Below, piece by piece: positions 19,139-51,230 of a stretch of DNA of 64,000 nucleotides. Both the position numbers and the translations under genes were made by a program. Position 1 is the stretch's first letter. Every line of letters starts with the position of its first letter. Where the stretch lies: the NCBI RefSeq assembly GCF_023035675.1, contig NZ_CP073142.1:1-64000 (forward strand). Reading direction: 5' to 3'. This DNA comes from Borrelia hermsii DAH (GTDB lineage Bacteria; Spirochaetota; Spirochaetia; Borreliales; Borreliaceae). The notes under the pieces are model-generated. The model searched no databases, had not been told where the DNA came from, and saw nothing but the letters and a program-made list of their open reading frames with translations.

Positions 19139-20092
19139 TTGAAATACAAGATCTTTATTATATGCACTCTAACAGGTTTGTTTCTACCTCTCTTAGCTCT
19201 GGTTTCTTGCAACTCAGAACATGAAAAAACAGAAATAGTAAAATTAGGAGCAAAATTAAATGCAAACACTCTTACACCTAATCCTGGCAAGACTGATCCA
19301 CTAAAGCCTGATAATCCTGGCGGAGGGGCAACTGATCCTAACGGTGGGGCAGCAGCAGGCAATTCTGGCAGCAGAGCTGCAAACCAACAGGATGAAGCTA
19401 AAAAACAGAGTATTATCGATTACTTAATAGCACTTATTAATCAAGGGATAAAAGACAACATAAACACACATAATGATACAACTTGGAATGAGGCTGCAGG
19501 AGGATACAACATTCAAGCTTCCAATCAATTATTTGGTGTAATTCAGTATACTGATGCTCAGAAGCAGCAAAAACTCTATAACCTTCAGGATAATGAGAGC
19601 AAAACAGCTAGACGAGAAATGTACCTGGGCTTTGATTATTTTCCACCATACATTGAAGCTTTTGGGAAACTTGCAAATAAAATGGTATCAACTCAAAATG
19701 TACAAATGAAAACCGATCTCGAAAATATGGTGGATAAGATAAGAGAATATGGTACAGCTTACTACTTAACAGCATTCAATACGCTAATTAAAAAACAAGA
19801 TAAGCTTATGGGGCTGGACCTAGGTGATTTACAAACACTGAAAGAAAAATTTAATGAAATTAATTTAGCAAATACCGAGATTTCCCATGAATTCACATAT
19901 CTAATCTACTATAATTACGATAAGAATATAGAAGTTGGTACCGCTGACCCTAAACATCAACTTCAAACTACTGCTACCGCTGAGGAAATACAAGATTATC
20001 TAAAAGACAGATTCAATTCAGCTGAATCCGACTTCGATGCAATCATAAAGGAAGCTACCGATATTGCCAACATCTTAAATAAGATTCAATAA
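19139..20092 (+). CDS. PFam54-type lipoprotein with short Gly/Pro stalk
   Basis: 317 residues, Cys24 (LALVSCNSE), TTG start behind AACAAGGAGAATATT. Its linker carries PNPGKTDPLKPDNPGGGATD and GGAAAGNSGSRAANQQ. The core switches type: instead of YDISGANQLFDVIEYDNAQS it has YNIQASNQLFGVIQYTDAQK, shared with the 20306, 21397, 22763 and 24806 genes. The C-terminal block is GTADPKHQLQTTATAEEIQD rather than GTAKHTLQDNATAEEIQ. It is thus the first member with the second allele type at both variable blocks. Confidence 0.65.
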   Translation: MKYKIFIICTLTGLFLPLLALVSCNSEHEKTEIVKLGAKLNANTLTPNPGKTDPLKPDNPGGGATDPNGGAAAGNSGSRAANQQDEAKKQSIIDYLIALINQGIKDNINTHNDTTWNEAAGGYNIQASNQLFGVIQYTDAQKQQKLYNLQDNESKTARREMYLGFDYFPPYIEAFGKLANKMVSTQNVQMKTDLENMVDKIREYGTAYYLTAFNTLIKKQDKLMGLDLGDLQTLKEKFNEINLANTEISHEFTYLIYYNYDKNIEVGTADPKHQLQTTATAEEIQDYLKDRFNSAESDFDAIIKEATDIANILNKIQ

Positions 20093-20147
20093 GATATAAA
20101 CATCGGTTATAAATCTATTACATAATAAATTTGTTATTAAATTTTGT

Positions 20148-20182
20148 AATAAGGAGAAACATTTTTCTCCTTATTCTTTTTT
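20148..20182 (+). terminator. Intrinsic terminator, array type
   Basis: Perfect 12-bp stem AATAAGGAGAAA / TTTCTCCTTATT with CATT loop, then CTTTTTT. Confidence 0.75.
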
Positions 20183-20305
20183 GCATTCTTATATTATCTT
20201 GATATTTAAATTAAACAAATATTATTTTATAATAACTATAATATAGTAATACTATTGCTAATAATATTAATATATTTGTTTAATCTTGAAAATAAGGAGA
20301 ATATT

Positions 20306-21166
20306 TTGAAATACAAGATTTTTATTATATGCATTTTAACAGGTTTGTTTTTACCACTTTTAGCTCTGATTTCTTGCAACTCAGAACCTGAAAAAACGGA
20401 GGGAGTAAAATTAGGAGCAAAATTAAATGCAAACACTCTTATGCCAAAGCCTGGCAGAATTGCAGACCAACAGGATGAAGCTAAAAAACAGCTTATTATC
20501 AATGACTTAATAGCATTTATTATTCCAATAATAAAAGACAACATAGACACACATAATGATACAACTTGGGATGAGGATGCGCAAGGATACAACATTAAAG
20601 CTTCCAATCAATTATTTGGCGTAATTCAGCATACTGATGCTCAGGGCAATAAAAAACTCTATAACGCTCAGGATGATGGAAGTAAAACAGCTAGACGAGA
20701 AATGTACCTAGGCTTTGATTATAAGAAAAACTACATTAAAGCTTTTGGGGCACTTGCAAACAAAATGATAGCAGCTAAAAATGCACAAATGAAAACCGAT
20801 CTCGAAAATATGGTGGATAAGATAAGAGAATATGCTAGAGCTTACTATTTAACAGCATTCAATACGCTAATTAAAAAAAAAGATAAGCTCTTGAAGTTGG
20901 ATCTAAGTGATCTACAAACACTGAAAGCAAAGTTTTGGGGAATGTCATCCACATATCGCGATATTTCATTTCACTTATCTTCAATCTACAATGATTACGA
21001 TAAGGACATAAAAGTTGGTACCGCTAAACATCAACTTCAAACTACTGCTACCGCTGAGGAAATACAAAAGTACCTAAAAGACAAATTCAAGCCAATTGAA
21101 GCCTACTTCAATACAATTATAAATACAGCTCCCAGGGCTACCGGTATCTTAAATAAGATTCAATAA
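20306..21166 (+). CDS. PFam54-type surface lipoprotein, short linker
   Basis: 286 residues, Cys24 (LALISCNSE), TTG start. The linker is cut to PKPGRIADQQDEAKKQ. Core: YNIKASNQLFGVIQHTDAQG, RREMYLGFDYKKNYIKAFGA and GTAKHQLQTTATAEEIQKYL. The last block is a hybrid of the two C-terminal types seen in neighbours. The middle FWGMSSTYRDISFHLSSIYN is private to this gene and is where members differ most. Confidence 0.65.
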   Translation: MKYKIFIICILTGLFLPLLALISCNSEPEKTEGVKLGAKLNANTLMPKPGRIADQQDEAKKQLIINDLIAFIIPIIKDNIDTHNDTTWDEDAQGYNIKASNQLFGVIQHTDAQGNKKLYNAQDDGSKTARREMYLGFDYKKNYIKAFGALANKMIAAKNAQMKTDLENMVDKIREYARAYYLTAFNTLIKKKDKLLKLDLSDLQTLKAKFWGMSSTYRDISFHLSSIYNDYDKDIKVGTAKHQLQTTATAEEIQKYLKDKFKPIEAYFNTIINTAPRATGILNKIQ

Positions 21167-21221
21167 GATATAAACATCGGTTATAAATCTATTACATAAT
21201 AAATTTGTTATTAAATTTTGT

Positions 21222-21256
21222 AATAAGGAGAAACATTTTTCTCCTTATGCTTTTTT
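21222..21256 (+). terminator. Intrinsic terminator, array type
   Basis: AATAAGGAGAAA / TTTCTCCTTAT hairpin, then GCTTTTTT. Confidence 0.7.
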
Positions 21257-21396
21257 GCGGCCTTATATTATCTTGCTAATTAAATTAAATAAATATATAT
21301 TAGCTTATAATAACTATTATATATTAATACTATTGCTAACAATATTAATAAATATATTCAATAAATTTGTTTAATCTTGAAAATAAGGAGAATATT

Positions 21397-22533
21397 TTGA
21401 AATACAAGATTTTTATTATATTCATTTTAACAGGTTTGCTTCTACCGCTCTTAGCTCTGGTTTCTTGCAACTCAGAACCTGAAAAAACAGAGGGAGTAAA
21501 ATTAGGAGCAAAATTAAATGCAAACACTCCTACACCTAAGCCTGGTGGACTAACTGGTGGTGGGCTACGCAAGCTCGATCCACCACCAAAGCCTGGCGGC
21601 GGAGCAACTGATCCTGGCAACAGTGCAGGTAATCATCCTGGCGGCGGAGCAACTGATCCTGGCAGCGGTGCGGGCAATCATCCTGGCGGCGGAGCAACTG
21701 ATCCTGGCGGAGGGGCAACTACTGGTCCTAGCGGAGGGGCAACTAGTCCTGGCGGCGGAGCAACTGATCCTAACGGTGGGGCAACTGATCCTGGCAGCGG
21801 TGCGGGCAATCATCCTGGCGGAGGTGCAGACCAACAGGATGAAGCTGAAAAACAGGATATTATTGATTACTTCACAAAACTTATGCATCAAGGAATAAAA
21901 AAAAGCATAAGCATACATAATGATACAACTTGGAGTGAAGTTGGAGAAAGTTACAACCTTCAAACTTCCGCTCAATTCTTCGGTGTAATTCAGTATACTG
22001 ATGCTAAAAAACAGAAAAAACTTTATAATACTCAGGATGATGAGAGTAAAACAGCTAGACGCGAAATGTACCTGGCCTTTGAATATTTGCTACCATACAT
22101 TGAAGCTTTTGGAGCACTTGCAAACAAAATGGCAGCAGCTCAAAATGTACAAATGAAAACCGAGCTTACAAATATGGTGAAGAAGATAAGACAATATGCT
22201 AGGGCTTTCTACTTAACAGCATGCAATCCGCTAATTAAAAAACAAGACAAGCTTATGGAGCTGGACCTAAGTGATTTACAAACACTTAAAGCAAAGGTTG
22301 GAGCAATTAATACAGAATATAAAAATATTAATTTCTTATTTATAAATTCAATCTATAATGATTATTATAATAACATAGAAATTGGTACCGCTAAACATAC
22401 ACTTCAAGATAATGCTACCGCTGAGGAAATACAAGCTTATCTAAACGGCAAATTCACTTCAGTTGAATCCGAATTCAATACAGTCATAAAGGAAGCTCCC
22501 GATGTTGCCGGTATCTTAAATAAAATTCAATAA
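21397..22533 (+). CDS. PFam54-type lipoprotein with Gly-rich repeat stalk
   Basis: 378 residues, Cys24, TTG start. Residues about 48-145 form a repeat stalk made of GGGATDPG, GGGATTGPS, and GSGAGNHP units. Its DNA is far richer in G and C than anything around it. The core follows at about 150 (YNLQTSAQFFGVIQYTDAKK, RREMYLAFEYLLPYIEAFGA, GTAKHTLQDNATAEEIQAYL). The stalk should be flexible and uncharged, lifting the helical core from the membrane. It is a shorter version of the stalk in the next gene. Confidence 0.65.
   Translation: MKYKIFIIFILTGLLLPLLALVSCNSEPEKTEGVKLGAKLNANTPTPKPGGLTGGGLRKLDPPPKPGGGATDPGNSAGNHPGGGATDPGSGAGNHPGGGATDPGGGATTGPSGGATSPGGGATDPNGGATDPGSGAGNHPGGGADQQDEAEKQDIIDYFTKLMHQGIKKSISIHNDTTWSEVGESYNLQTSAQFFGVIQYTDAKKQKKLYNTQDDESKTARREMYLAFEYLLPYIEAFGALANKMAAAQNVQMKTELTNMVKKIRQYARAFYLTACNPLIKKQDKLMELDLSDLQTLKAKVGAINTEYKNINFLFINSIYNDYYNNIEIGTAKHTLQDNATAEEIQAYLNGKFTSVESEFNTVIKEAPDVAGILNKIQ
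21540..21832 (+). repeat. GC-rich tandem repeat encoding the Gly-rich stalk
   Basis: Imperfect 24- and 27-bp units built on GGCGGCGGAGCAACTGATCCT and GGCGGAGGGGCAACTACTGGT, coding residues about 48-145 of the 21397 gene. Confidence 0.8.
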
Positions 22534-22588
22534 GATATAAATATCGGTTATAAATCTATTACATAATAAATTTGTTATTAAATTTTGT

Positions 22589-22622
22589 AATAAGGAGAAA
22601 CATTTTTCTCCTTATGCTTTTT
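22589..22622 (+). terminator. Intrinsic terminator, array type
   Basis: AATAAGGAGAAA / TTTCTCCTTAT hairpin followed by GCTTTTT. Confidence 0.7.
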
Positions 22623-22762
22623 GCAGCCTTATATTATCTTGCTAATTAAATTAAATAAATATATATTAGTTTATAATAACTATTATATATTAATACTATT
22701 GCTAACAATATTAATAAATATATTCAATATATTTGTTTAATCTTGAAAATAAGGAGAATATT

Positions 22763-24574
22763 TTGAAATACAAGATTTTTATTATATTCATTTTAGCAGG
22801 TTTGCTTCTACCGCTCTTAGCTCTGGTTTCTTGCAACTCAGAACCTGAAAAAACAGAAATAGTAAAATTAGGAGCAAAATTAAAGGCAAACACTCCTACA
22901 CCTAAGCCTGGTGGACTAACTGGTGGTGGGCTACGCAAGCACGATCCACCACCAAAGCCTGGCGGCGGAGCAACTGATCCTGGCGGAGGGGCAACTACTG
23001 GTCCTAGCGGAGGCGCAACTGATCCTGGCGGAGGAGCAACTGATCCTGGCAGCGGCGCGGGCAATCATCCTGGCGGAGGCGCAACTGATCCTGGCGGAGG
23101 GGCAACTGATCCTGGCAGCGGCGCGGGCAATCATCCTGGCGGAGGCGCAACTGATCCTGACGGAGGGGCAACTACTGGTCCTAGCGGAGGGGCAACTACT
23201 AGTCCTGGCGGAGGGGCAACTAGTCCTGGCGGCGGAGCAACTACTGGTCCTAGCGGAGGGGCAACTAGTCCTGGCGGCGGAGCAACTACTGGTCCTAGCG
23301 GAGGGGCAACTAGTCCTGGCGGCGGAGCAACTACTGGTCCTAGCGGAGGGGCAACTAGTCCTGGCGGCGGAGCAACTACTAGTCCTGGCGGAGGGGCAAC
23401 TAGTCCTGGCGGCGGAGCAACTACTAGTCCTAGCGGAGGGGCAACTACTAGTCCTGGCGGAGGGGCAACTAGTCCTGGCGGCGGTGCGGGCAATCATCCT
23501 GGCGGCGGAGCAACTACTGGTCCTAGCGGAGGGGCAACTAGTCCTGGCGGCGGAGCAACTGATCCTAACGGTGGGGCAACTGATCCTGGCAACAGTGCAG
23601 GTAATCATCCTGGCGGAGGGGCAACTAGTCCTGGCGGCGGAGCAACTACTGGTCCTAGCGGTGGGGCAACTAGTCCTGGCGGCGGAGCAACTACTGGTCC
23701 TAGCGGAGGGGCAACTAGTCCTGGCGGCGGAGCAACTGATCCTGGCAGCAGTGCGGGTAATCATCCTGGCGGCTGGGTAACTAGTCCTGGCGGCGGAGCA
23801 ACTGATCCTGGCAGCAGTGCGGGTAATCATCCTGGCGGCTGGGTAACTGGTCCTGTCGGCGGAGCTGCAGACCAACAGGATGAAGCTGCAAAACAGAATA
23901 CTATCGATTACTTAATAAGCTTTATTATTCCAGCAATAAAAACCAAAATAAACATACATAATGATGCAACTTGGAATGAGGGCGGAGAAGATTATAACAT
24001 CTCAGGAGCCAATCAATTCTTCGGCGCAATTCAGTATACTGATGCTCAGAAGCAGCCAAAACTTTATAATACTCAGGATGATGAGAGTAAAACAGCTAGA
24101 CGCGAAATGTACCTAGGTTTTGGTTATTCTCCACCACACATTGAAGCTTTTGGGAAACTTGCCAACAAAATGGTAGCAGCTCAAAATGTACAAATGAAAA
24201 CTGATCTCGAAAATATGGTGGATAAGATAAGAAAATATAGTAAAGCTTACTATTTAACAACATACAATACGCTAAATGACAAACAAGATAAGCTTATGAA
24301 GCTGGCTCTAAGTGATTTACAAATACTGAAAGAAAGGTTTAGTGAAATTGATTCATCAAATAGCGATATTAACTCAAAATTCGTATATTCAATCGCAAAG
24401 GATTGCCATGAGGACATAAAAATTGGTACCGCTAAACATCAACTTAAAACTACTGCTACCGCTGAGGAAATACAAGATTATCTAAAAGACAAATTCGATT
24501 CAGCTGAATCCGACTTCGATAACGCCATAAATACAGCTAATGAGATTGCCGGTATCTTAAATAAGATTCAATAA
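22763..24574 (+). CDS. PFam54-type lipoprotein with a very long Gly-rich repeat stalk
   Basis: 603 residues, more than twice the usual array length; Cys24 (LALVSCNSE); TTG start behind AATAAGGAGAATATT. Residues about 65-370 are an almost uninterrupted low-complexity stalk of GGGATTGPS, GGGATSP, GGGATDP and GSGAGNHP units, with two variant PGGWVTSP/GGWVTGP units near its end. The usual core starts at about 375 (YNISGANQFFGAIQYTDAQK, RREMYLGFGYSPPHIEAFGK, GTAKHQLKTTATAEEIQDYL). Compared with the stalk-less 16953 gene, the entire size difference is the repeat. The reading frame is intact throughout. A flexible uncharged spacer of this length could carry the core beyond other surface proteins; that is inference. 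Confidence 0.7.
   Translation: MKYKIFIIFILAGLLLPLLALVSCNSEPEKTEIVKLGAKLKANTPTPKPGGLTGGGLRKHDPPPKPGGGATDPGGGATTGPSGGATDPGGGATDPGSGAGNHPGGGATDPGGGATDPGSGAGNHPGGGATDPDGGATTGPSGGATTSPGGGATSPGGGATTGPSGGATSPGGGATTGPSGGATSPGGGATTGPSGGATSPGGGATTSPGGGATSPGGGATTSPSGGATTSPGGGATSPGGGAGNHPGGGATTGPSGGATSPGGGATDPNGGATDPGNSAGNHPGGGATSPGGGATTGPSGGATSPGGGATTGPSGGATSPGGGATDPGSSAGNHPGGWVTSPGGGATDPGSSAGNHPGGWVTGPVGGAADQQDEAAKQNTIDYLISFIIPAIKTKINIHNDATWNEGGEDYNISGANQFFGAIQYTDAQKQPKLYNTQDDESKTARREMYLGFGYSPPHIEAFGKLANKMVAAQNVQMKTDLENMVDKIRKYSKAYYLTTYNTLNDKQDKLMKLALSDLQILKERFSEIDSSNSDINSKFVYSIAKDCHEDIKIGTAKHQLKTTATAEEIQDYLKDKFDSAESDFDNAINTANEIAGILNKIQ
22960..23870 (+). repeat. About 0.9-kb GC-rich tandem repeat (24/27-bp units)
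   Basis: Higher-order array of GGCGGCGGAGCAACTACTGG TCCTAGC and GGAGGGGCAACTAGTCCT units, with local blocks repeated exactly several times (23220-23460). Every forward and reverse frame stays open through most of it, so long antisense frames here are artefacts. Confidence 0.85.
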
Positions 24575-24630
24575 GATATCAATATCGGCTATAAATATAT
24601 TACATAATAAATTCTGTAATTAAATTTTGT

Positions 24631-42502: not shown

Positions 42503-42541
42503 TATCAGCTTGGATACCCCAAGCTGATAGGTGGCTTAACC
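42503..42541 (-). repeat. Hairpin next to the GGTTAAGCCACC motif (degenerate small-RNA element)
   Basis: A perfect 11-bp stem TATCAGCTTGG / CCAAGCTGATA with a 5-nt loop. On the minus strand it is preceded directly by GGTTAAGCCACC, as in the elements near 47.4 and 50.1 kb. Confidence 0.5.
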
Positions 42542-43045: not shown

Positions 43046-44416
43046 TTATAAAGAACGAATTAAATGTCCAATGTCATTTGATATTTTCAATAAAGAGTGG
43101 ATTTCCAACGCTATAGGCCCATCTGAAGCAGCAATTACTCTCAATGACGACAACATCCTATCTCTATTATTTTTATATTCTATTGCCCCATTCAACTTAT
43201 TAACTATTTTAAGCATCACATTTGCTCTTACGTCAATAAACTCTTGTAACTTAAGGTCAATTTCAGCTATTTTTTCTGAAGACATGCTTTTATTAATTAA
43301 AGCTAATTTTTCTTCACTGAAATTCAAACTTAAATTTAGATAGGCATAAGCTGAAGCATAATATAATTGGTATAACACACCTGCCATAAGCTTCGTTTCA
43401 CTATCGCTGTATCTATAATCATTAATATCGATTGATAAATCTAACTCTTTACATAGACTTTTTAAAACCTGAATATCTTCAATACTATTTCCTAATGTTG
43501 CATAAATTTTTCTCTTTATCCTTTGATGCTCATAATATTGTAATTTTTTAGCAATAACCTGGTCATCAAATAAAGAGTCTTTTGGATCAAATCCTGCTTC
43601 TTTGGCTGCAACTGTATCTACTACAGCATTAAGCTCTTTAATATGAAAGTCTAGCCTCATGGTGAATATTTTATAAGCCAGATCTCTGGCTGCTTTACCA
43701 TCTTGCTTCCCATCACCATCTACAGTTCCATCACCATCTACAGTTCCATCACCATCTACAGTTCCATCACCATCTACAGTTCCATCACCATCTACAATTC
43801 CATCACCATCTACAGTTCCATCACCATCTACAGTTCCATCACCATCTACAGTTCCATCACCATCTACAGTTCCATCACCATCTACAGTTTTATCACCATC
43901 TACAGTTTTATCACCATCTACAGTTTTATCACCATCTACAGTTTTATCACCATCTACAGTTTTATCACCATCTACAGTTTTATCACCATCTACAGTTTTA
44001 TCACCATCTACAGTTTTATCACCATCTACAGTTTTATCACCATCTACAGTTTTATCACCATCTACAGTTTTATCACCATCTACAGTTTTATCACCATCTA
44101 CAGTTTTATCACCATCTACAGTTTTATCACCATCTACAGTTTTATCACCATCTACAGTTTTATCACCATCTACAGTTTTATCACCTCCAACCAACAAACT
44201 AACATTATCTACTTTTATTGGTGTTAAAATGCCCCTTCTTAACTCTTCCCTAACTAATGGGGCGCGTCGTGGTATAACCACCTTATTTAAAGCAGAACCT
44301 CTTATTACTCCACCTCCTTTGGAAATTACACCATCTAAATGTTTCTTCCCTTGATGCCCACATCCTATCATCATTATGCTTATAGCACAACAAATTAATA
44401 CAATAAATTTTTTCAC
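43046..44416 (-). CDS. Lipoprotein with a 26-copy hexapeptide stalk
   Basis: 456 residues, Cys19 (IMMIGCGHQ). GTG start at 44416 behind AAGGAGAA. Residues about 78-233 are 26 hexapeptides: 17 consecutive DKTVDG, then nine DG(T/I)VDG, leaving a strictly acidic and Gly-rich stalk. The core (about 240-456) shows RIKRKIYATLGNSIEDIQVL, AYAYLNLSLNFSEEKLALIN and VRANVMLKIVNKLNGAIEYK, matching the helix order of the other minus-strand lipoproteins. The D-x-D-G-x-x-D register of the stalk resembles calcium-binding loops of dockerin or thrombospondin type-3 repeats, so metal binding is possible but unproven. An alternative is a simple electrostatic spacer. Confidence 0.6.
   Translation of the reverse strand: MKKFIVLICCAISIMMIGCGHQGKKHLDGVISKGGGVIRGSALNKVVIPRRAPLVREELRRGILTPIKVDNVSLLVGGDKTVDGDKTVDGDKTVDGDKTVDGDKTVDGDKTVDGDKTVDGDKTVDGDKTVDGDKTVDGDKTVDGDKTVDGDKTVDGDKTVDGDKTVDGDKTVDGDKTVDGDGTVDGDGTVDGDGTVDGDGTVDGDGIVDGDGTVDGDGTVDGDGTVDGDGTVDGDGKQDGKAARDLAYKIFTMRLDFHIKELNAVVDTVAAKEAGFDPKDSLFDDQVIAKKLQYYEHQRIKRKIYATLGNSIEDIQVLKSLCKELDLSIDINDYRYSDSETKLMAGVLYQLYYASAYAYLNLSLNFSEEKLALINKSMSSEKIAEIDLKLQEFIDVRANVMLKIVNKLNGAIEYKNNRDRMLSSLRVIAASDGPIALEIHSLLKISNDIGHLIRSL
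43719..44186 (-). repeat. 26 tandem copies of an 18-bp unit
   Basis: Unit on the minus strand: GTGATAAAACTGTAGATG (17 copies, 43881-44186) changing sharply to GTGATGGAACTGTAGATG (nine copies, 43719-43880; one has ATT for ACT). Counted from the fixed 18-base spacing. The block also leaves an open plus-strand frame, which is an artefact. Confidence 0.9.
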
Positions 44417-45035: not shown

Positions 45036-45288
45036 ATGTCAGATAATTGAAATACAATTGGAAGATCTAAAACAGAGTTTGCCAAGGTTTCTAATTATAT
45101 GGGTTTAATTATATGGAACTTTAGCATTTAAGAGATAGTAAGTACGTTCTAGAGATCTTGCGGGAATAGTTAGATTTTTGGTATCAAGATATATTACTTC
45201 ATAAGTAAAATTACAATTTTAGCTCTACTAAATTAATACAACCATAACTCAAATCAATTAATAATAATTGATAATAAATCATAAAAAT

Positions 45289-45325
45289 GCCAGTCTACGC
45301 ACACTTAGAAACATAAACTGGCTAA
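45289..45325 (-). terminator. Intrinsic terminator of the 45408 gene
   Basis: On the minus strand GCCAGTTTATG pairs with CGTAGACTGGC (11 bp, two G-U pairs), followed by CATTTTTA. The stem resembles those at 47.3 and 50.1 kb (CCAGTTTACGT, CCAGCTTACGT). Confidence 0.6.
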
Positions 45326-45407
45326 AACAATTTACCCTGTATTTTACATTTTTTCTACATTTAAATCAAAAACTCTTGCCCTACAACTAAGGCAATTGTG
45401 GCCACAA

Positions 45408-46397
45408 TTAAATGTGGTCAAACATTCTTATCTCCCCAAACTGCACCATCTGCTTTAATCTACCAACATAAAAGCAAATGTCCCCTTTTAAGCTTAGTAA
45501 GTTACGTGAAAAATAATAGTTAGGAGCACCATACACTGGTAACGCTAAAACTTCCGAACTACAAAGCTCTCCGCTTGTACCAATTATTGACATCAATCTC
45601 TCGCTCATTTTATCTGGATCATTCAAACTTGCCACTTCCCTTAGCCTATCTTTCAATATTTTTGCAATCAAAGCATGATAATTAATCAACATTTCTACCA
45701 TAGACTTAACAACATCAAGCTTTTCTAAATCATCACTTTTTTGAAGCAGATCTAAATTAACTTGTCTAAAACCAAGTTGCATAACTTTGCGGACATTCGA
45801 CGCACCATATAATAAATCTCTAACTAAATCCCGAGCAGCATCAATACGACTCCACCACATATTTTTAGCTGTTAATCTCTCTACTATACTTTTTAAGTCA
45901 AGAATAGCTTCCCTATCATAGTCTAGCGACATATAAAGATCATCTTTAACATACTGATTTTTTATATCTTTTGACCTAAGGGAAGTCCTATTATTGGGAC
46001 CCACCATCTTATAAACCTCAAAGTGGGAATACCATTGGGAGCCATCAAAAAATGACCCAAATTTTTCATTATGCAATATGCCATCAGCAAAATCAGATCC
46101 GTCAAACTCTTTCATAAGCTTATCACGCTTAGAGTCCCATGTTGCATTAAAATCATCTATCATCGCCTTCAAGTCGGCATAAACTTCCCCTGCTGACCTT
46201 ACTATTCTTAGATTTTCTAAATTTTCTTCTAGCAGCTGATACTCGTTATTGCCTTGGGTATAAACTTCATATGTTACTAAACCTGATGATTGATCCCCTG
46301 ATGAATCTGACTGACTATTTGCTGGTAATGTACCTGTGGAACATCCAACAAATACACTTAAAACACTTGTAATAAGAAATACTATAAATATTTGCAT
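45408..46397 (-). CDS. Surface lipoprotein of the minus array, no repeat stalk
   Basis: 329 residues, Cys19 (VFVGCSTGT), ATG at 46397 behind AAAGGAGAATG with rather wide spacing. A Ser/Asn-rich linker of about 50 residues precedes the core. A family-type helix DDLYMSLDYDREAILDLKSI follows near residue 148, then a long helical tail (QKSDDLEKLDVVKSMVEMLI, HALIAKILKDRLREVASLND). It has an insertion before the Y-x-x-L helix (SFFDGSQWYSHFEVYKMVGP) not seen in its neighbours. Function unknown; distant PFam54-like fold suspected. Confidence 0.5.
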   Translation of the reverse strand: MQIFIVFLITSVLSVFVGCSTGTLPANSQSDSSGDQSSGLVTYEVYTQGNNEYQLLEENLENLRIVRSAGEVYADLKAMIDDFNATWDSKRDKLMKEFDGSDFADGILHNEKFGSFFDGSQWYSHFEVYKMVGPNNRTSLRSKDIKNQYVKDDLYMSLDYDREAILDLKSIVERLTAKNMWWSRIDAARDLVRDLLYGASNVRKVMQLGFRQVNLDLLQKSDDLEKLDVVKSMVEMLINYHALIAKILKDRLREVASLNDPDKMSERLMSIIGTSGELCSSEVLALPVYGAPNYYFSRNLLSLKGDICFYVGRLKQMVQFGEIRMFDHI

Positions 46398-46810
46398 TAC
46401 TAAACATTCTCCTTTCTCACTTTATACCTTACAACAAAGCATGTACACCATAACACTGTACAATAAGCAATGTATAATTTTTATATAAAGCAATATTTTA
46501 CTACTAATTGTGTATGTATATTATTAAACTAATTAGTAAGATAATACTATCTTAATCAACTTCAAATATCAATGCCTAACCTTTCTTCAATTTTTTTGTC
46601 ACTCTTATCCTTGTATCAAACAAAAAACTTAAATCAAAATAAATGGCAAAATACTCTTAAATGATGCTCCTAATAGATACCTTAGATTAATAATCTTAAA
46701 AAAGATAAAGATATATGTAATACATACTCTCATCATAAACTTGTTCTCTACATTCCTTATTTTTCATGAGATTTCAAAAGAAATTACAAATTTGAATTTA
46801 TAAAATTGAG

Positions 46811-46860
46811 TCACCACCTGATCCAGACTACTTATCTAAGAAATGTAGACCGGTATTTTT
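46811..46860 (+). repeat. Degenerate hairpin element in plus orientation
   Basis: CACCACCTGATC followed by an imperfect hairpin (CCAGACTAC / GTAGACCGG) and TATTTTTATT. The CCACCTGATC string and order match the minus-strand elements at 47.4 and 50.1 kb. Confidence 0.4.
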
Positions 46861-47317
46861 ATTATCAACCTTTTTTAATTAACTACTTAAAGACAGTAAA
46901 ATAAATCATAACACCTACTATTCTACATTTATTATTATAAATAATACATATTATATCTTTATATCTATTATTATATACGAATTATTATTAATTACCACAA
47001 TTAATATCATTTTTTTCAAGATTTTTACTTACTATTTTATTTATTTCTATACTTAATTTTCATATTTTATCTGTAATTTATAAGTCCAATTAAACTATAC
47101 AATAGTGAACTTTGATAAACTTCTCTTTAAAAACCTCAATAGCCACGCTGCCGCTTTTGGAATTTGCTGATTAGTCCACTACTTACACTCTACATACACA
47201 TAAACTTAACAATAATTAAAATACTTATTTATTATTAAATAATTTATCTTTAAATTTATTCCCATATTACTAATAAAATATAGAAATAATTAAAGCAATA
47301 TCATAATAAGTCAACAC

Positions 47318-47393
47318 AATAAAAAACCAGTTTACGTCTTTAAATTAAATTTTAAAATACGTAAACTGAACCAGGTGGTGGCTTAACCTGTAA
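47318..47393 (-). ncRNA. Candidate small RNA, copy 2
   Basis: Minus strand: promoter TTGCAA (47428-47423), 18-nt spacer, TATAAT (47404-47399). ATTACAGGTTAAGCCACCACCTGG follows, then CAGTTTACGT / ACGTAAACTG (10-bp stem) and GGTTTTTTATT. No reading frame. The same arrangement is repeated at 50.06-50.17 kb. Confidence 0.45.
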
Positions 47394-47398
47394 TATTT

Positions 47399-47428
47399 AT
47401 TATACATTAAATAATGTAAAATTTGCAA
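47399..47428 (-). promoter_or_regulatory. Promoter of small-RNA candidate copy 2
   Basis: TTGCAA, 18 nt, TATAAT on the minus strand. Confidence 0.45.
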
Positions 47429-47473
47429 CCTATCGTAATTAATATTAAATTAAAACTTACAACTAAATTTAAA

Positions 47474-47569
47474 CAGCAGACTGCCTAACAAATACAAAAG
47501 CTTGATTGATTGTATCTTTAATAGTACTTCCCCCTCCCTTTGTGCAAGCATATTATCTAGCATAATATT
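47474..47569 (-). pseudogene. Fragment of a minus-array lipoprotein
   Basis: The minus strand reads NIMLDNMLAQREGEVLLKIQ, corresponding to EAMLDDVLVQREKMVGLLQN of the 47738 gene just upstream. It has neither start nor signal peptide. Confidence 0.4.
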
Positions 47570-47613
47570 AAAATACCATTTACAATATTATTTACAGTCA
47601 ACCAAACACAAAA

Positions 47614-47735
47614 AATATAGCCTACACACTTATGTAGGCTTAATACTTAATTAATACTTAATATAATAAATTACTATTAACGTCTTGCTCACAAGCAACC
47701 GCAGGCTACTACAAATGCATAGATTATGACGCTGA
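47614..47735 (-). repeat. About 120-bp intergenic repeat, copy 1, with terminator hairpin
   Basis: Nearly identical to 48862-48985. On the minus strand AGCCTACA-TAAGTG-TGTAGGCT (47619-47640) is followed by ATATTTTTTG, an intrinsic terminator for the 47738 gene. Confidence 0.65.
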
Positions 47736-47737
47736 GC

Positions 47738-48643
47738 TTACTTATTTATCAATGCTTTAACTTTATCTTGAATTTTGTAGCGCAAGCTTGTCAAATTCCT
47801 ACCTACAACACAAATTGGATTATCAGCACATTTTTTCATTCGCATAGTAAGATCTTTACGGGAATCAATGATCGATTTTAATGCCTCTTTAATCTGTTCT
47901 TTGTCACTTAAAGCCGCTGCTTCCCTGATTGTATTTTGGAGTAGTCCTACCATCTTCTCCCTTTGTACAAGCACATCATCTAGCATAGCCTCAAGCTCAC
48001 CTAAACCCTCTACATCTTGTACGTCTTTAGGCTTGATTAAATTGACATTACTTTCAATAAAACCCAAATCTATTCCAATTATCCCTAAAACCGCCAATAA
48101 CTCAGCAGGAGTCCGCAAATTCACCTCGCTATTATCAGTCTTAGTTGTTAAACTCATTACTATTGCTTTCAAATTATCTAAAGTTTCAACATCTCGCTTT
48201 AAGCTAGTATGAACTTGCCTATATTGAGCTCTGGGAACATCAGCCCAAACTGTAGAAAAAATATTCTCAAATTTAGACTCATCAAATCCTTCAGGCTTAT
48301 AACTTAATGAATCTTTAAACTTATTAAAGCTCTCAAGTAATGCCATATAAGCTTTCTCTGGTATTTTTACTTTATATTCTCCTGCTGGTGTTCTTGATTT
48401 ATATTCCCCTGCTGGTGTTATTGATTCATCTTCTCCTGCTGGTGTTATTGATTCATCTTCTCCTGCTGGTGTTCTTGATTTATATTCTCCTGCTGGTGTT
48501 CTTGATTTATATTCTCCTGCTGGTGTTCTTGATTCATCTTCTCCTGCTAGCGTTATTGGGCCATCTTCCCTGCTCTTAGGTCCACATCCCAACACTAACC
48601 CCAACACATTGAGTATAAATATTGCCATACATATCTTTTTCAT
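47738..48643 (-). CDS. Lipoprotein with nonapeptide repeat stalk
   Basis: 301 residues, Cys20 (GLVLGCGPK). I choose the ATG at 48643 (8 nt from AAAGGA) over the one two codons upstream. Residues about 31-93 are seven nonapeptides of the form TPAGE(YK/DE)S(R/I), alternating between a Tyr-Lys and an Asp-Glu version. The core begins with AYMALLESFNKFKDSLSYKPEG..., a motif shared with the 49006 and 50241 genes, then VHTSLKRDVETLDNLKAIVM and LGELEAMLDDVLVQREKMVG. Followed by a terminator hairpin at 47619. Confidence 0.55.
   Translation of the reverse strand: MKKICMAIFILNVLGLVLGCGPKSREDGPITLAGEDESRTPAGEYKSRTPAGEYKSRTPAGEDESITPAGEDESITPAGEYKSRTPAGEYKVKIPEKAYMALLESFNKFKDSLSYKPEGFDESKFENIFSTVWADVPRAQYRQVHTSLKRDVETLDNLKAIVMSLTTKTDNSEVNLRTPAELLAVLGIIGIDLGFIESNVNLIKPKDVQDVEGLGELEAMLDDVLVQREKMVGLLQNTIREAAALSDKEQIKEALKSIIDSRKDLTMRMKKCADNPICVVGRNLTSLRYKIQDKVKALINK
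48365..48553 (-). repeat. Seven tandem 27-bp units
   Basis: Units such as ACACCAGCAGGAGAATATAA (ATCAAGA), coding TPAGEYKSR variants in the 47738 gene. First and last units are the most diverged. Confidence 0.8.
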
Positions 48644-49005
48644 TAACATTTTCCTTTCTACTTTATTTTCGCATTACACACTACCCTTATATTATGCAGC
48701 ATATAATACATCTTTATACTTATTATAATACAATAATAATACTATTAATTTAATATGTCTAATTATATTTCATTAATTAATCTCTTTGCCTAAATTTAAT
48801 TGGCGCTCTACATCTTGACTTTGCTTCTCTTAAATTTTTCTTCCCTAAGCAACAAAAACAAAAATATAGCCTACACACTTATGTAGGCTTAATACTTAAT
48901 TAATACTTAACATAATAAATTACTATTTAACGTATTACTCACAAGCAACCGCAGGCTACTTAACAAATATACAGGTTATGACAATGACTAGATCTATTTC
49001 TCTAA
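48644..49005. other. Intergenic region with repeat copy 2
   Basis: Holds the 48862-48985 repeat with a terminator hairpin. No other gene is visible. Confidence 0.5.
48862..48985 (-). repeat. About 120-bp intergenic repeat, copy 2, with terminator hairpin
   Basis: AGCCTACACACTTATGTAGGCT hairpin at 48868-48889 with AAAAATAT before it on the plus strand, so it is U-rich on the minus strand: a terminator for the 49006 gene. CACAAGCAACCGCAGGCTACT is shared exactly with copy 1. Confidence 0.65.
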
Positions 49006-49902
49006 CTATTCCTTCTTAGACCCTTTCTTCTTGGGACTTTTCTTCTTTAACTCTTCCTCTTTAATTCTTGCGCTAAGACGATCCTGTCTCTCCTGCTGTT
49101 CTACTAAATCATCAATCTTATTTTTAATTATATCTCTTAAGCCTAGCAAACTATCATGACCATTCTCAATTTTCTCCAAAATCTCTCCGTTCTTACCAAA
49201 AGTTAAATTTACGGCATCCCTAATTGATGCGACCTTTTTTAAACCTGATATATCCCTTATTTTCTCCTTTAATAGTTCTATCACATGTTCCCTTTTTAAA
49301 TGTAAGTTACCCAAAGCAAGCCTAACAACATTAATTACCTCTATATTATTACTCTTCTGCAATATACTTAAGTTGGCATTACTTAAAATCTGACCATCCT
49401 CTTCCACAACATCACTAACGTAAATCCCACTATCTCTTAACCCTATCAATAACTTTTCAGCTGCTTCCTTATCAGCAGCAATACCAGTAGCTTTTAATGC
49501 CCTTACAACTTGTCTTACTCTCTCAATATGTATAATGCCATGCTTTAGGCCAATGTAAAAATAATCCTTTGAGTAATAATCATCACTTCTAAAGGACCGA
49601 TTAAAGTCATTAAAAATGTCATCGAATGTGGACTTGTCAAATCCTTCAGGCTTAGAATTTATTGAATCTTTAAGCTTACCCAAGCTTTCAAGTAATGCAG
49701 CATAAGGTGTCTGTGGTAGTGGAACCTTGTATGGGCTTGGTTTTATTGGATCGGGCGTATTTAATTGATTCATCGTATGGATAATTTTTACTGCATGTAA
49801 ATTGATTGGACTATTTGATGAAACTTTTGCACCTGCTGCACAGCTTAGCATCAATAACCCCAAAATACTAACTGCACATATTATCATACCTGTTCTTATC
49901 AT
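49006..49902 (-). CDS. Surface lipoprotein of the minus array, basic C-terminal tail
   Basis: 298 residues, Cys21 (LLMLSCAAG), ATG behind AAGGAGAATAT. A Pro-rich linker (DPIKPSPYKVPLPQTPYAAL) leads into LLESLGKLKDSINSKPEGFD, the block shared with 47738 and 50241. Then IGLKHGIIHIERVRQVVRAL and IVSDVVEEDGQI-type segments, and LKREHVIELLKEKIRDISGL. The last 25 residues are strongly basic (RIKEEELKKKSPKKKGSKKE), which its sisters lack. The tail could bind nucleic acid, heparin-like glycans or the membrane surface; this is inference. Confidence 0.5.
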   Translation of the reverse strand: MIRTGMIICAVSILGLLMLSCAAGAKVSSNSPINLHAVKIIHTMNQLNTPDPIKPSPYKVPLPQTPYAALLESLGKLKDSINSKPEGFDKSTFDDIFNDFNRSFRSDDYYSKDYFYIGLKHGIIHIERVRQVVRALKATGIAADKEAAEKLLIGLRDSGIYVSDVVEEDGQILSNANLSILQKSNNIEVINVVRLALGNLHLKREHVIELLKEKIRDISGLKKVASIRDAVNLTFGKNGEILEKIENGHDSLLGLRDIIKNKIDDLVEQQERQDRLSARIKEEELKKKSPKKKGSKKE

Positions 49903-50059
49903 ATATTCTCCTTATCTTAAGTTATGTGTATCTTTCATGATTAACAATACATAGGAACTATGAATCTATGCAAAATCTATGTAAGACACAATACTTACCC
50001 GTAAGATTAATTAATAATATTGCCAATTAATAGTTTTGTTATTATTTTTATTAATAATA

Positions 50060-50134
50060 ACAAAAAGACCAGCTTACGTCTTTAATTTACGTTTTAAAGT
50101 ACGTAAGCTGGATCAGGTGGTGGCTTAACCTGTA
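50060..50134 (-). ncRNA. Candidate small RNA, copy 1
   Basis: Minus strand: TTGCAG (50169-50164), 17-nt spacer, TATAAT (50146-50141). ATTACAGGTTAAGCCACCACCTGATC follows, then a hairpin of 11 bp (CCAGCTTACGT / ACGTAAGCTGG) extended by CTTTAA / TTAAAG, and TCTTTTTGTT. The stem differs from copy 2 at one pair in a compensatory way (T-A against C-G), which supports a folded RNA. It could alternatively act only as the terminator of the 50241 gene. Confidence 0.5.
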
Positions 50135-50140
50135 ATATTT

Positions 50141-50169
50141 ATTATACTTAAATAATATTAAATCTGCAA
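50141..50169 (-). promoter_or_regulatory. Promoter of small-RNA candidate copy 1
   Basis: TTGCAG, 17 nt, TATAAT on the minus strand. Confidence 0.5.
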
Positions 50170-50240: not shown

Positions 50241-51230
50241 TTACCATGGTGCTGGCTTATGTAATAATTTATTGACTTGCTTCCTAATTGCATTTCTCAG
50301 GCCTTGTAAACCTAAAATTGGCTCACTAGTAGAATAAATTCTATCATAAATAAATCCAGGTTTATTAATAAACTTATTAATATGCAAACTCACTCCTAGA
50401 GCTGCTCCTTGCATAGTAGCTAATCCTGCTGCTCCTTGTAGCACTATCTTAACTTTCTCTATTATCTCATTACGTACCAATAACATACGATCTAGCATGT
50501 CTTTAAGCTCTGTAATGCCTGCTTCATTATCGACACTTTTAAGTAAAGTTAAATTGTCTTTACTTAAAATTTCATTCTCATCATTAAAAACTTGAATTAC
50601 ATATTGTATACTATTATTTAAATTACTTAACAAATCAGAAGCAGCACCCCAATTCACACCCTGTTTAAACACATCAGAAGCAAGATTCCAATTCTCACCC
50701 TTTTTAAACAAATCATAAGCAGCTATCAAATTTACACCCTCAGAAGCAGTATTCAAATCCACAGGTCTACCAGAACCTGCCAACATCTCTATTACCGCCC
50801 TTAAATGACCTAAAGTTTTAATATCTCGCTTTACGCTAGCATAAACATGCTCTGTTCTAGGACTAACTTGAGGGGGAGAATGCCAAAATTTGTTAAACAT
50901 ACTATAAAACTGAAATTCATCAAAACATTCAGGCTTATAACTTAATGACTCTTTAAGTCTCTCCAAACTTTCAAGTAATGCAGCATAAGCTTCCTCTGAT
51001 AATATCATTGATTCTACTGGTAATATTCTTGGCTCTCCTGATAATATTGTTGATCTTTTTTGCAACATTTCTGAGCCGCCTTTCTTAATCTTAACTCCTA
51101 AGCCACGTAACTTTGATAATAAACCATTACCACTTGAAGAATTTTCTTTAAAAAATTCAGCACCAGATGGACACCCTAACAATAGTACGAAAGAACACAA
51201 AACACAGGCTATAATACATGTTTTTTTCAT
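50241..51230 (-). CDS. Surface lipoprotein with internal helical repeats
   Basis: 329 residues, Cys20 (VLLLGCPSG), ATG behind AAAGGAGTTTTTTA. The linker carries two RS/ILSGEPRILPVESMILSE-like units, followed by AYAALLESLERLKESLSYKP shared with 47738 and 49006. Unusually, residues about 164-201 are a 13-14-residue repeat in three copies (GVNLIAAYDLFKK, GENWNLASDVFKQ, GVNWGAASDLL) placed inside the core, where sisters have a plain loop. It ends with LDRMLLVRNEIIEKVKIVLQ and a basic tail. Confidence 0.5.
   Translation of the reverse strand: MKKTCIIACVLCSFVLLLGCPSGAEFFKENSSSGNGLLSKLRGLGVKIKKGGSEMLQKRSTILSGEPRILPVESMILSEEAYAALLESLERLKESLSYKPECFDEFQFYSMFNKFWHSPPQVSPRTEHVYASVKRDIKTLGHLRAVIEMLAGSGRPVDLNTASEGVNLIAAYDLFKKGENWNLASDVFKQGVNWGAASDLLSNLNNSIQYVIQVFNDENEILSKDNLTLLKSVDNEAGITELKDMLDRMLLVRNEIIEKVKIVLQGAAGLATMQGAALGVSLHINKFINKPGFIYDRIYSTSEPILGLQGLRNAIRKQVNKLLHKPAPW
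50628..50741 (-). repeat. Three diverged 39-42-bp repeats inside a lipoprotein core
   Basis: Code for GVNLIAAYDLFKK, GENWNLASDVFKQ and GVNWGAASDLL in the 50241 gene. The DNA copies share AAACA(C/A)ATCA-AAGCA strings. Confidence 0.6.

What the first reader, a model, noticed from the sequence alone, without database searches (positions are those of the whole stretch)
47318..50169. Multicopy small-RNA-like element with a compensatory stem change
Seen: at 50.06-50.17 kb and 47.32-47.43 kb the minus strand carries the same order of parts. These are a -35/-10 pair (TTGCAG-17-TATAAT; TTGCAA-18-TATAAT), a conserved ATTACAGGTTAAGCCACCACCTG, a hairpin, and a U-run, with no ORF. The stems differ by a paired change (CAGCTTACGT/ACGTAAGCTG against CAGTTTACGT/ACGTAAACTG), so selection appears to act on the fold. 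Inference: short RNAs of about 75 nt expressed from between lipoprotein genes, possibly pairing through the conserved GGTTAAGCCACC to array mRNAs. I know of no described Borrelia RNA family with this signature. The simpler reading is a mobile terminator that happens to have a -10-like sequence upstream.
Basis: partly seen in the sequence, partly recalled or inferred. Interest (0 to 1): 0.8.

Follow-up and report, generated by a model that had tools for sequence, protein, structure and literature searches.

The report
Small RNA with a complementary partner
Relapsing-fever spirochetes carry, among fast-changing surface-protein genes on a large plasmid, a strongly conserved element that looks like the gene of a small RNA of about 70 letters, together with a nearby sequence that could pair with it; this may be an undescribed RNA switch.

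Summary
Two copies (R1a, R1b) lie where stated: promoter, fixed 23-nt motif, hairpin, U-run, no start codon. The element is in 40 Borrelia plasmid records of 11 named species and 9 of 18 genus genomes; no strong match in 18 genomes of the sister genus. Over 23 copies the terminator stem changes with compensation and TATAAT is kept in 22.

New here: 0.4-4.6 kb downstream on the same strand lies a conserved complement, R2 (46826-46802), in 16 of 16 loci, each behind a TATATAAT-type box. R1:R2 duplexes score -30 to -50 kcal/mol in 19 of 19 cognate pairs tried. Of 13 distinct transition differences 11 keep pairing as G-U; five distinct transversions break it. A third element, R3 (42541-42503), shares GGTTRAGCCACC plus a hairpin.

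Best reading: R1 is a base-pairing small RNA whose main partner is the R2 leader. Expression and effect are inferred; no RNA data were available, and the functional strand of R2 is not settled. Seven full-text searches listed no description.

The parts
50164..50169 (-). R1a -35 TTGCAG (3 of 6 letters of TTGACA)
   Evidence: TTGCA[A/G/T] in 23 of 23 copies; not listed by the scan
50141..50146 (-). R1a -10 TATAAT
   Evidence: TATAAT in 22 of 23 copies
50062..50134 (-). R1a predicted small RNA, about 73 nt (5' end inferred from the -10 spacing)
50114..50132 (-). R1a 5' hairpin and pairing region CAGGTTAAGCCACCACCTG
   Evidence: hardly varies, so no covariation information
50069..50111 (-). R1a terminator hairpin
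47423..47428 (-). R1b -35 TTGCAA
47399..47404 (-). R1b -10 TATAAT
47321..47392 (-). R1b predicted small RNA, about 72 nt (5' end inferred)
46970..46977 (-). R2 conserved -10-like box TATATAAT (CATATAAT or CATATAGT in three loci)
   Evidence: found in 16 of 16 loci; best-scoring forward promoter in 13 of 16 loci, not in B. hermsii, B. nietonii or G012
46823..46853 (-). R2 hairpin CCGGTCTAC...GTAGTCTGG
   Evidence: strand preference inconclusive
46802..46826 (-). R2 site complementary to the R1 5' region
42503..42541 (-). R3: GGTTAAGCCACC followed by a hairpin; same motif, no promoter recognised
50241..51230 (-). lipoprotein-like gene upstream of R1a (relatives also precede R1a in B. coriaceae and B. 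anserina)
47738..48649 (-). lipoprotein-like gene upstream of R1b, with its own terminator at 47640-47619
45408..46397 (-). PFam54-type (CRASP family) lipoprotein gene, start 427 nt downstream of the R2 core
43046..44344 (-). gene X; relatives precede R3 in 8 of the species compared

Best explanation
R1 is a family of promoter-driven, intrinsically terminated, trans-acting small RNAs of about 70 nt. The conserved 5' region (AGGUURAGCCACCACCUGAUYCAG) opens and pairs with the R2 site, over up to about 26 bp in the best species and about 15-17 uninterrupted bp in B. hermsii. R2 lies 86-157 nt behind a conserved -10-like box, i.e. in the leader of whichever transcript runs into the next lipoprotein gene. 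The likely outcome is duplex formation and RNase III-type cleavage, or altered stability, of that leader; because R2 can pair with both R1 copies it would also titrate them. Shown by sequence comparison: conserved R1 promoter and terminator, RNA strand of R1, conserved complementarity. Inferred: transcription of R1 and R2, duplex formation in the cell, cleavage, direction of the effect. Not known: why R3 shares the motif.
For: Conservation is bounded to the element: 0.93-0.95 mean pairwise identity in the motif against 0.33-0.41 beyond +70 (12 of 23 copies, ungapped), while proteins of neighbouring genes are about 21-54% identical between species outside the turicatae group (BLASTP hits). Terminator: 97.6% of cells paired, 3 pairs (12 cells) changed on both sides; 0 of 500 shuffles reach the cell percentage, changed cells or covariation score, but 19 reach the pair count and 95 the number of pair types. 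In the stem there are 49 G-U against one A-C cell, which fixes the RNA strand. R2 complement in 16 of 16 loci. Duplex -29.7 to -50.1 kcal/mol, z -6.1 to -12.9, in 19 of 19 cognate pairs tried, out of 23 R1 copies. R2 is the best site for R1a in the 64-kb window after the antisense strands of R1a and R1b. Exact CAGGTGGTGGCT occurs only at R1 (antisense) or R2 in the 9 of 18 genus genomes that have it. 11 of 13 distinct transition differences keep G-U pairing; over 12 shared positions R1:R2 has 25 keeping and 5 breaking cells, R3:R2 14 and 9. In B. coriaceae R1b has CCTA where the other 22 copies have CCTG, and its R2 alone carries the matching change.
Against: No transcript data. In B. hermsii and B. 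nietonii the duplex has two internal mismatches and is among the weakest. In B. hermsii the R2 box is not the best-scoring promoter in its stretch and is not listed. Read backwards, R2 still looks like an R1 copy (hairpin, then U-run; E 3.2e-6 to 0.079 on that strand in 8 of 9 genomes), so the complementarity could simply descend from an inverted duplication; the strand test on its hairpin is inconclusive (12 G-U against 6 A-C cells). The pairing test was devised after seeing the data on nine hand-aligned representatives, its events are not independent in descent, five distinct transversions break pairs (one, at the first position, in all nine), and it is modest (p 0.011 at an even null; 0.033 without two B. 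anserina events). The gene behind R2 differs between species and is degenerate in several. R2 does not overlap an evident ribosome-binding site of a conserved ORF. The 5' hairpin of R1 hardly varies and one pair is broken in two copies.
Confidence: 0.55

Rival explanations
1. R1, R3 and the reverse strand of R2 are homologous copies of one RNA element (motif plus hairpin). The shared RAGCCACC is read by a protein or by an unrelated trans target; R2 is an inverted copy and R1:R2 pairing is incidental.
For: The R1 model matches the reverse of R2 over its full length in 8 of 9 genomes, with a U-run after the hairpin; R3 carries the same motif on the R1 strand; the motif can sit in a small hairpin in R1 and, with one pair broken in 4 of 13 distinct rows, in R3. 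Some reverse promoter-like sites exist, e.g. TTTACA-18-TATAAA in G012 and TATAAT in B. miyamotoi.
Against: R2 has a -10-like box in the forward direction in 16 of 16 loci, the best-scoring one in 13 of 16, while reverse sites sit at inconsistent distances (17-60 nt). Differences lean towards keeping R1:R2 pairing. B. coriaceae shows a matched change, though copying between R1b and R2 could also give it.
Confidence: 0.24
2. A duplicated or mobile intrinsic terminator with a chance -10-like sequence upstream; no regulatory RNA.
For: R1a starts about 107 nt after a gene with no other terminator listed between them; R3 follows gene X or another gene in most species; promoter-like sites in this AT-rich region are no commoner than chance.
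Against: TTGCA[A/G/T] in 23 of 23 and TATAAT in 22 of 23 copies; the conserved block begins near the -10, well before the terminator hairpin; R1b follows a complete terminator; no annotated gene between R1a and R1b in B. miyamotoi; two full copies in this genome, and in the other genomes at like places on one plasmid.
Confidence: 0.1
3. A type I toxin-antitoxin module: R1 is the antitoxin RNA and the R2 transcript encodes a short hydrophobic peptide.
For: In B. hermsii the R2 core is followed after 88 nt by a 35-codon hydrophobic frame, and short frames follow in some relatives.
Against: The short frames are not conserved in length or sequence, are missing in several species, and look like broken lipoprotein signal peptides (the last by eye).
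Confidence: 0.04

Closest known systems
Small RNAs of Lyme Borreliella (DsrA, ittA/SR0736, BasA/SR0735, SR0726; PMC13081726 and PMC9108270, passages seen)
   Same: Short RNAs of Borreliaceae that affect other genes' expression; BasA is given as 85 base pairs, SR0726 as a 98-nt mature form.
   Different: Those are Lyme-group RNAs with transcript evidence in the passages. R1 has no strong model match in 18 genomes of the sister genus (best E 0.138) and no Borreliella record among the matches; it has a conserved linked partner; its expression is unproven. No direct sequence comparison with those RNAs was made.
RNA pairs with a linked target (type I toxin-antitoxin systems; small-RNA sponges), recalled
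   Same: Two RNAs with long complementarity encoded close together and kept together.
   Different: R1 and R2 are on the same strand at separate places, not overlapping antisense; no conserved peptide behind R2.
vmp-associated downstream homology sequences (DHS) of B. hermsii, recalled
   Same: Extragenic repeats near surface-lipoprotein genes of relapsing-fever Borrelia.
   Different: By recall DHS elements accompany many vmp cassettes; R1 has two full copies in this assembly. The DHS sequence itself was not compared.

Membership tests
Bacterial trans-acting small RNA (general kind) | Own promoter | tested here: met
   TATAAT in 22 of 23 and TTGCA[A/G/T] in 23 of 23 copies; sequence evidence only, and R1a's -35 is weak against the consensus
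Bacterial trans-acting small RNA (general kind) | Intrinsic terminator on the same strand | tested here: met
   Stem with compensatory changes and U-run of at least 4 in 23 of 23 copies; the simple scan lists neither R1 hairpin
Bacterial trans-acting small RNA (general kind) | No conserved ORF | tested here: met
   No start codon shared by all copies; the window copies have none. The longest frames (TTG, 22 codons, open at the end of the 75-nt stretch read) are in five turicatae-group copies
Bacterial trans-acting small RNA (general kind) | Detected transcript | not testable with these tools
   No RNA data held; the main text of the ORF microarray study PMC4741519 has no occurrence of intergenic, non-coding, small RNA or antisense
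Bacterial trans-acting small RNA (general kind) | Conserved complementary partner | tested here: met
   R2 in 16 of 16 loci; duplex energies in 19 pairs; pairing in the cell untested, strand of R2 unsettled
Any Rfam family | Match at gathering score | tested here: not met
   0 matches in the window; one sub-threshold match, E 0.54, on the opposite strand at R1b
Type I toxin-antitoxin | Conserved small hydrophobic peptide encoded by the partner RNA | tested here: not met
   Short frames after R2 are not conserved
Mobile repeat or mobile terminator | Many copies at non-syntenic places | tested here: not met
   1-2 full copies per genome; in G012 the two are the same region in mirror orientation on one contig
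vmp DHS/UHS elements | Sequence match to DHS/UHS | not tested
   Sequence not at hand; only the copy number argues against

The most novel reading that the evidence does not exclude
R1, R2 and R3 form a self-contained RNA circuit that outlives the genes around it. R2 would be a dedicated anti-small-RNA (sponge) kept in species where the lipoprotein gene behind it has decayed, and R3 a third RNA competing for R2. It would set the output of the surface-lipoprotein region across the relapsing-fever clade, including soft-tick, hard-tick, louse- and bird-associated species.
Probability: 0.22. Interest if true: 0.78.

Novelty: new member of a known kind. Interest (0 to 1): 0.62.

Why it matters
In the seven searches made (titles and abstract starts of the listed papers seen) I saw no small RNA described for relapsing-fever Borrelia. 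This candidate is conserved through much of the clade in a plasmid region whose proteins change fast, and it comes with a predicted partner. That makes a concrete and cheap test of post-transcriptional control near surface-lipoprotein genes possible. PMC4741519 (abstract and first part of the results read) reports that 83 of 112 ORFs with probes on the B. turicatae megaplasmid rise more than 2-fold at 22 C relative to 35 C, so a regulator encoded there would be of interest.

Tried and rejected
Exact 17-mer search in genome contigs gave 14 stretches, all in other bacteria by title; taken as chance and not examined. The tool notes that near relatives of the window may be left out there.

R3 as a full member of R1: not claimed. 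It has the motif, and its hairpin has two pairs changed on both sides, but 39 of 500 shuffles reach that pair count and all 500 reach its number of pair types, and several cells are broken. No promoter was seen (by eye; none listed nearby) and its U-run is weak.

A +-strand near-copy at C7:128363: 4 mismatches, no R1-like -10 or hairpin; treated as chance.

Other weak model matches: two that I looked at (window 45279-45345 and coriaceae 34783) are gene terminators without the motif; the rest at E above about 0.015 (in G001, G006, G013, G014, G018, G045 and others) were not looked at.

A conserved ORF starting at the GTG GTG in R2: rejected, the frame is not kept. Type I toxin peptide: disfavoured. 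Strand of R2 by hairpin wobbles: inconclusive (five of sixteen loci - anserina, recurrentis, G010, G012, G017 - were left out because their arms do not align simply).

Chromosomal near-site CAGGTGGTGGTT occurs also in genomes that lack R1, so it was not taken as a target.

Full report
Setting. The window is part of contig C7 (184,687 bases) of a 1.5-Mb assembly. The R1a query is identical in B. hermsii and B. nietonii megaplasmids; the R3 stretch is 100% identical in two B. hermsii records and 94.5% in B. nietonii, so the window is B. hermsii-like. The finding lies among lipoprotein-like genes on the minus strand. Seven genes were scanned: 45408-46397 matches PFam54_60 above its cut-off, and its counterpart is named a CRASP-family lipoprotein in the record; 51595-52413 matches PFam54_60 below the cut-off; the other matches are low-complexity-like or absent.

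Observation. Both copies are as described. They are 61 of 70 identical over the transcript and are the only two full copies among the matches in the assembly. The fold is two hairpins: a 5' one, CAGGT-9-ACCTG, formed by the conserved motif itself, and a strong terminator-like one. Rfam has no family for it. Against it stands: promoter-like sites in this AT-rich stretch are no commoner than chance, R1a's -35 is too weak to be listed, and the simple terminator rule lists neither R1 hairpin. The case therefore rests on conservation, not on consensus matches.

Distribution. In plasmid records, 44 records match; 40, all Borrelia and of 11 named species, hold at least 80% of the query, and the other 4 are short matches in other bacteria; no Borreliella record is among them. 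In held genomes, strong model matches (E below 1e-19) occur in 9 of 18 of the genus: G000, G004, G007-G010, G012, G015, G017. Of the nine without, three (G005, G006, G011) are single contigs of about 0.9 Mb, so plasmids may be missing; the other six are in 6 or more contigs.

R1 anatomy. Alignment of 23 copies (21 distinct): the structure has 97.6% of cells paired and three pairs (12 cells) changed on both sides. None of 500 shuffles reach the percentage, the changed cells or the covariation score; 19 reach the pair count and 95 the number of pair types; sliding the partners destroys it. In the stem there are 49 G-U cells against one A-C cell, as expected if the named strand is the RNA. The 5' helix hardly varies; its outer pair is broken in two copies. 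TATAAT in 22 of 23 and TTGCA[A/G/T] in 23 of 23. Mean pairwise identity (12 of 23 copies, ungapped) is 0.26-0.55 upstream of -31, 0.81-0.89 from -20, 0.93-0.95 in the motif and 0.33-0.41 right after the terminator. Proteins of neighbouring genes are about 21-54% identical between species outside the turicatae group and up to 95% inside it (BLASTP hits).

Not just a gene terminator. R1b's -35 lies about 190 nt behind a complete intrinsic terminator (47640-47619). In three B. miyamotoi plasmids no annotated gene lies between R1a and R1b. R1a, by contrast, could also end the transcript of the gene before it.

R2. DNA searches showed short matches on the opposite strand near R1. Read on the R1 strand this is a complementary site, GGATCAGGTGGTGGCTYAA-like, 0.4-4.6 kb downstream of R1 and present in the 16 of 16 loci examined, with a TATATAAT-type box 86-157 nt before it. 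Cognate R1:R2 duplexes score -29.7 to -50.1 kcal/mol, z -6.1 to -12.9, for the 19 pairs tried; the four copies of two further B. miyamotoi strains were not run. In the 64-kb window R2 is the best site for R1a after the antisense strands of R1a and R1b. Exact CAGGTGGTGGCT is found only at R1 or R2 in the 9 R1-bearing genomes and in none of the other 9; in B. hermsii and B. coriaceae R2 itself has one mismatch to it.

Pairing test. Nine representatives were aligned by hand over 25 nt. Distinct transition differences between R1 and R2 keep pairing as G-U in 11 cases and break it in 2; five distinct transversions break it too, one of them (first position) in all nine. Binomial p for 11 of 13 is 0.011 at an even null, 0.0013 at 0.4, and 0.033 for 9 of 11 with two B. 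anserina events left out. Over the 12 positions shared with R3, cells are 25 to 5 for R1:R2 and 14 to 9 for R3:R2. In B. coriaceae the CCTA of R1b (22 of 23 copies have CCTG) is matched by TTAGG in its R2 alone. These points favour R1:R2 pairing, but the test was made after the fact, species share descent, and copying between R1b and R2 could produce the B. coriaceae match.

Against it. The reverse strand of R2 resembles R1 including a U-run, and the R1 model finds it in 8 of 9 genomes at E 3.2e-6 to 0.079, so R2 arose as, or may still be, an inverted R1 copy. The wobble test on the R2 hairpin does not settle its strand (12 G-U against 6 A-C cells in 11 of 16 loci). The forward box is the best-scoring forward promoter in 13 of 16 loci but not in B. 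hermsii, B. nietonii or G012; reverse sites lie at inconsistent distances, though G012 and B. miyamotoi have fair ones. In B. hermsii and B. nietonii two mismatches interrupt the duplex.

What follows R2. In B. hermsii a degenerate 35-codon frame and then the PFam54-type gene at 427 nt; in B. nietonii and G012 a relative of that gene at 305 and 338 nt; frameshifted relatives in B. recurrentis and G017; other lipoprotein frames in B. coriaceae and G010; remnants in the turicatae group; in B. miyamotoi R3. R2 is thus better conserved than what follows it.

R3. A third element with YYAAGCCACC and a hairpin lies 240-505 nt behind gene X or its relatives in B. hermsii, coriaceae, anserina, turicatae, parkeri, puertoricensis, venezuelensis and fainii; in B. 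recurrentis it lies 77 nt behind a different gene, and in B. miyamotoi about 190 nt behind R2. Its hairpin has two pairs (6 cells) changed on both sides; 0 of 500 shuffles reach the cell count and covariation score, but 39 reach the pair count and 500 the number of pair types, and some cells are broken. The 12-mer GGTTRAGCCACC occurs in 10 of 18 genus genomes, in nine of them only at R1 or R3 and in G011 once on a single-contig genome; the reversed-pattern control gives none in 18. Its role is unknown.

Literature. Seven full-text searches listed no paper on such an RNA in relapsing-fever Borrelia; I saw titles and abstract starts. PMC4741519 (abstract, first part of the results, term search) profiled ORFs. 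Passages of PMC13081726 and PMC9108270 describe Lyme-group small RNAs. The library lacks most subscription papers, so absence there is weak evidence.

Verdict. A clade-wide small-RNA candidate with a conserved linked partner; a new family of a known kind. Expression, the strand of R2 and the effect remain to be shown.

Noticed in passing
window 48889-48868 and 47640-47619 (-): The same 22-nt intrinsic terminator AGCCTACATAAGTGTGTAGGCT with a T-rich tail follows two different lipoprotein genes; a close relative lies in B. coriaceae.
   Followed up: partly
window 42500-42346 (-), downstream of R3: The stretch between R3 and the next start codon is also well conserved, including a TTGTTTGTTATGAATGGACGAAACAA-like piece that might form a hairpin, also in loci where no gene is annotated on that strand right behind it.
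   Followed up: no
L077 and L078 (G012 contig C187, about 100-158 kb): The R1-R2-R3 region occurs twice in mirror orientation on one contig (R1 at 106753-106833 + and 153368-153448 -); this may be a large inverted repeat or an assembly that runs round a hairpin telomere.
   Followed up: no
L080:8371 (+) = C7:128363-128387: A 4-mismatch copy of the R1 motif (AAGCCACCACCT exact) elsewhere on the same contig, without R1-like promoter or terminator.
   Followed up: partly
G000:C1:310556-310567 (-) and similar places on contig C1 in G004, G007, G008 and G016 (also C1 in G003 and G013): A one-mismatch relative of the R2 core, CAGGTGGTGGTT, also in genomes without R1; gene context not examined.
   Followed up: no
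window 20000-24600 (+): G+C rises to about 40% against about 30% around it, with a 613-aa ORF and long ORFs on both strands.
   Followed up: no
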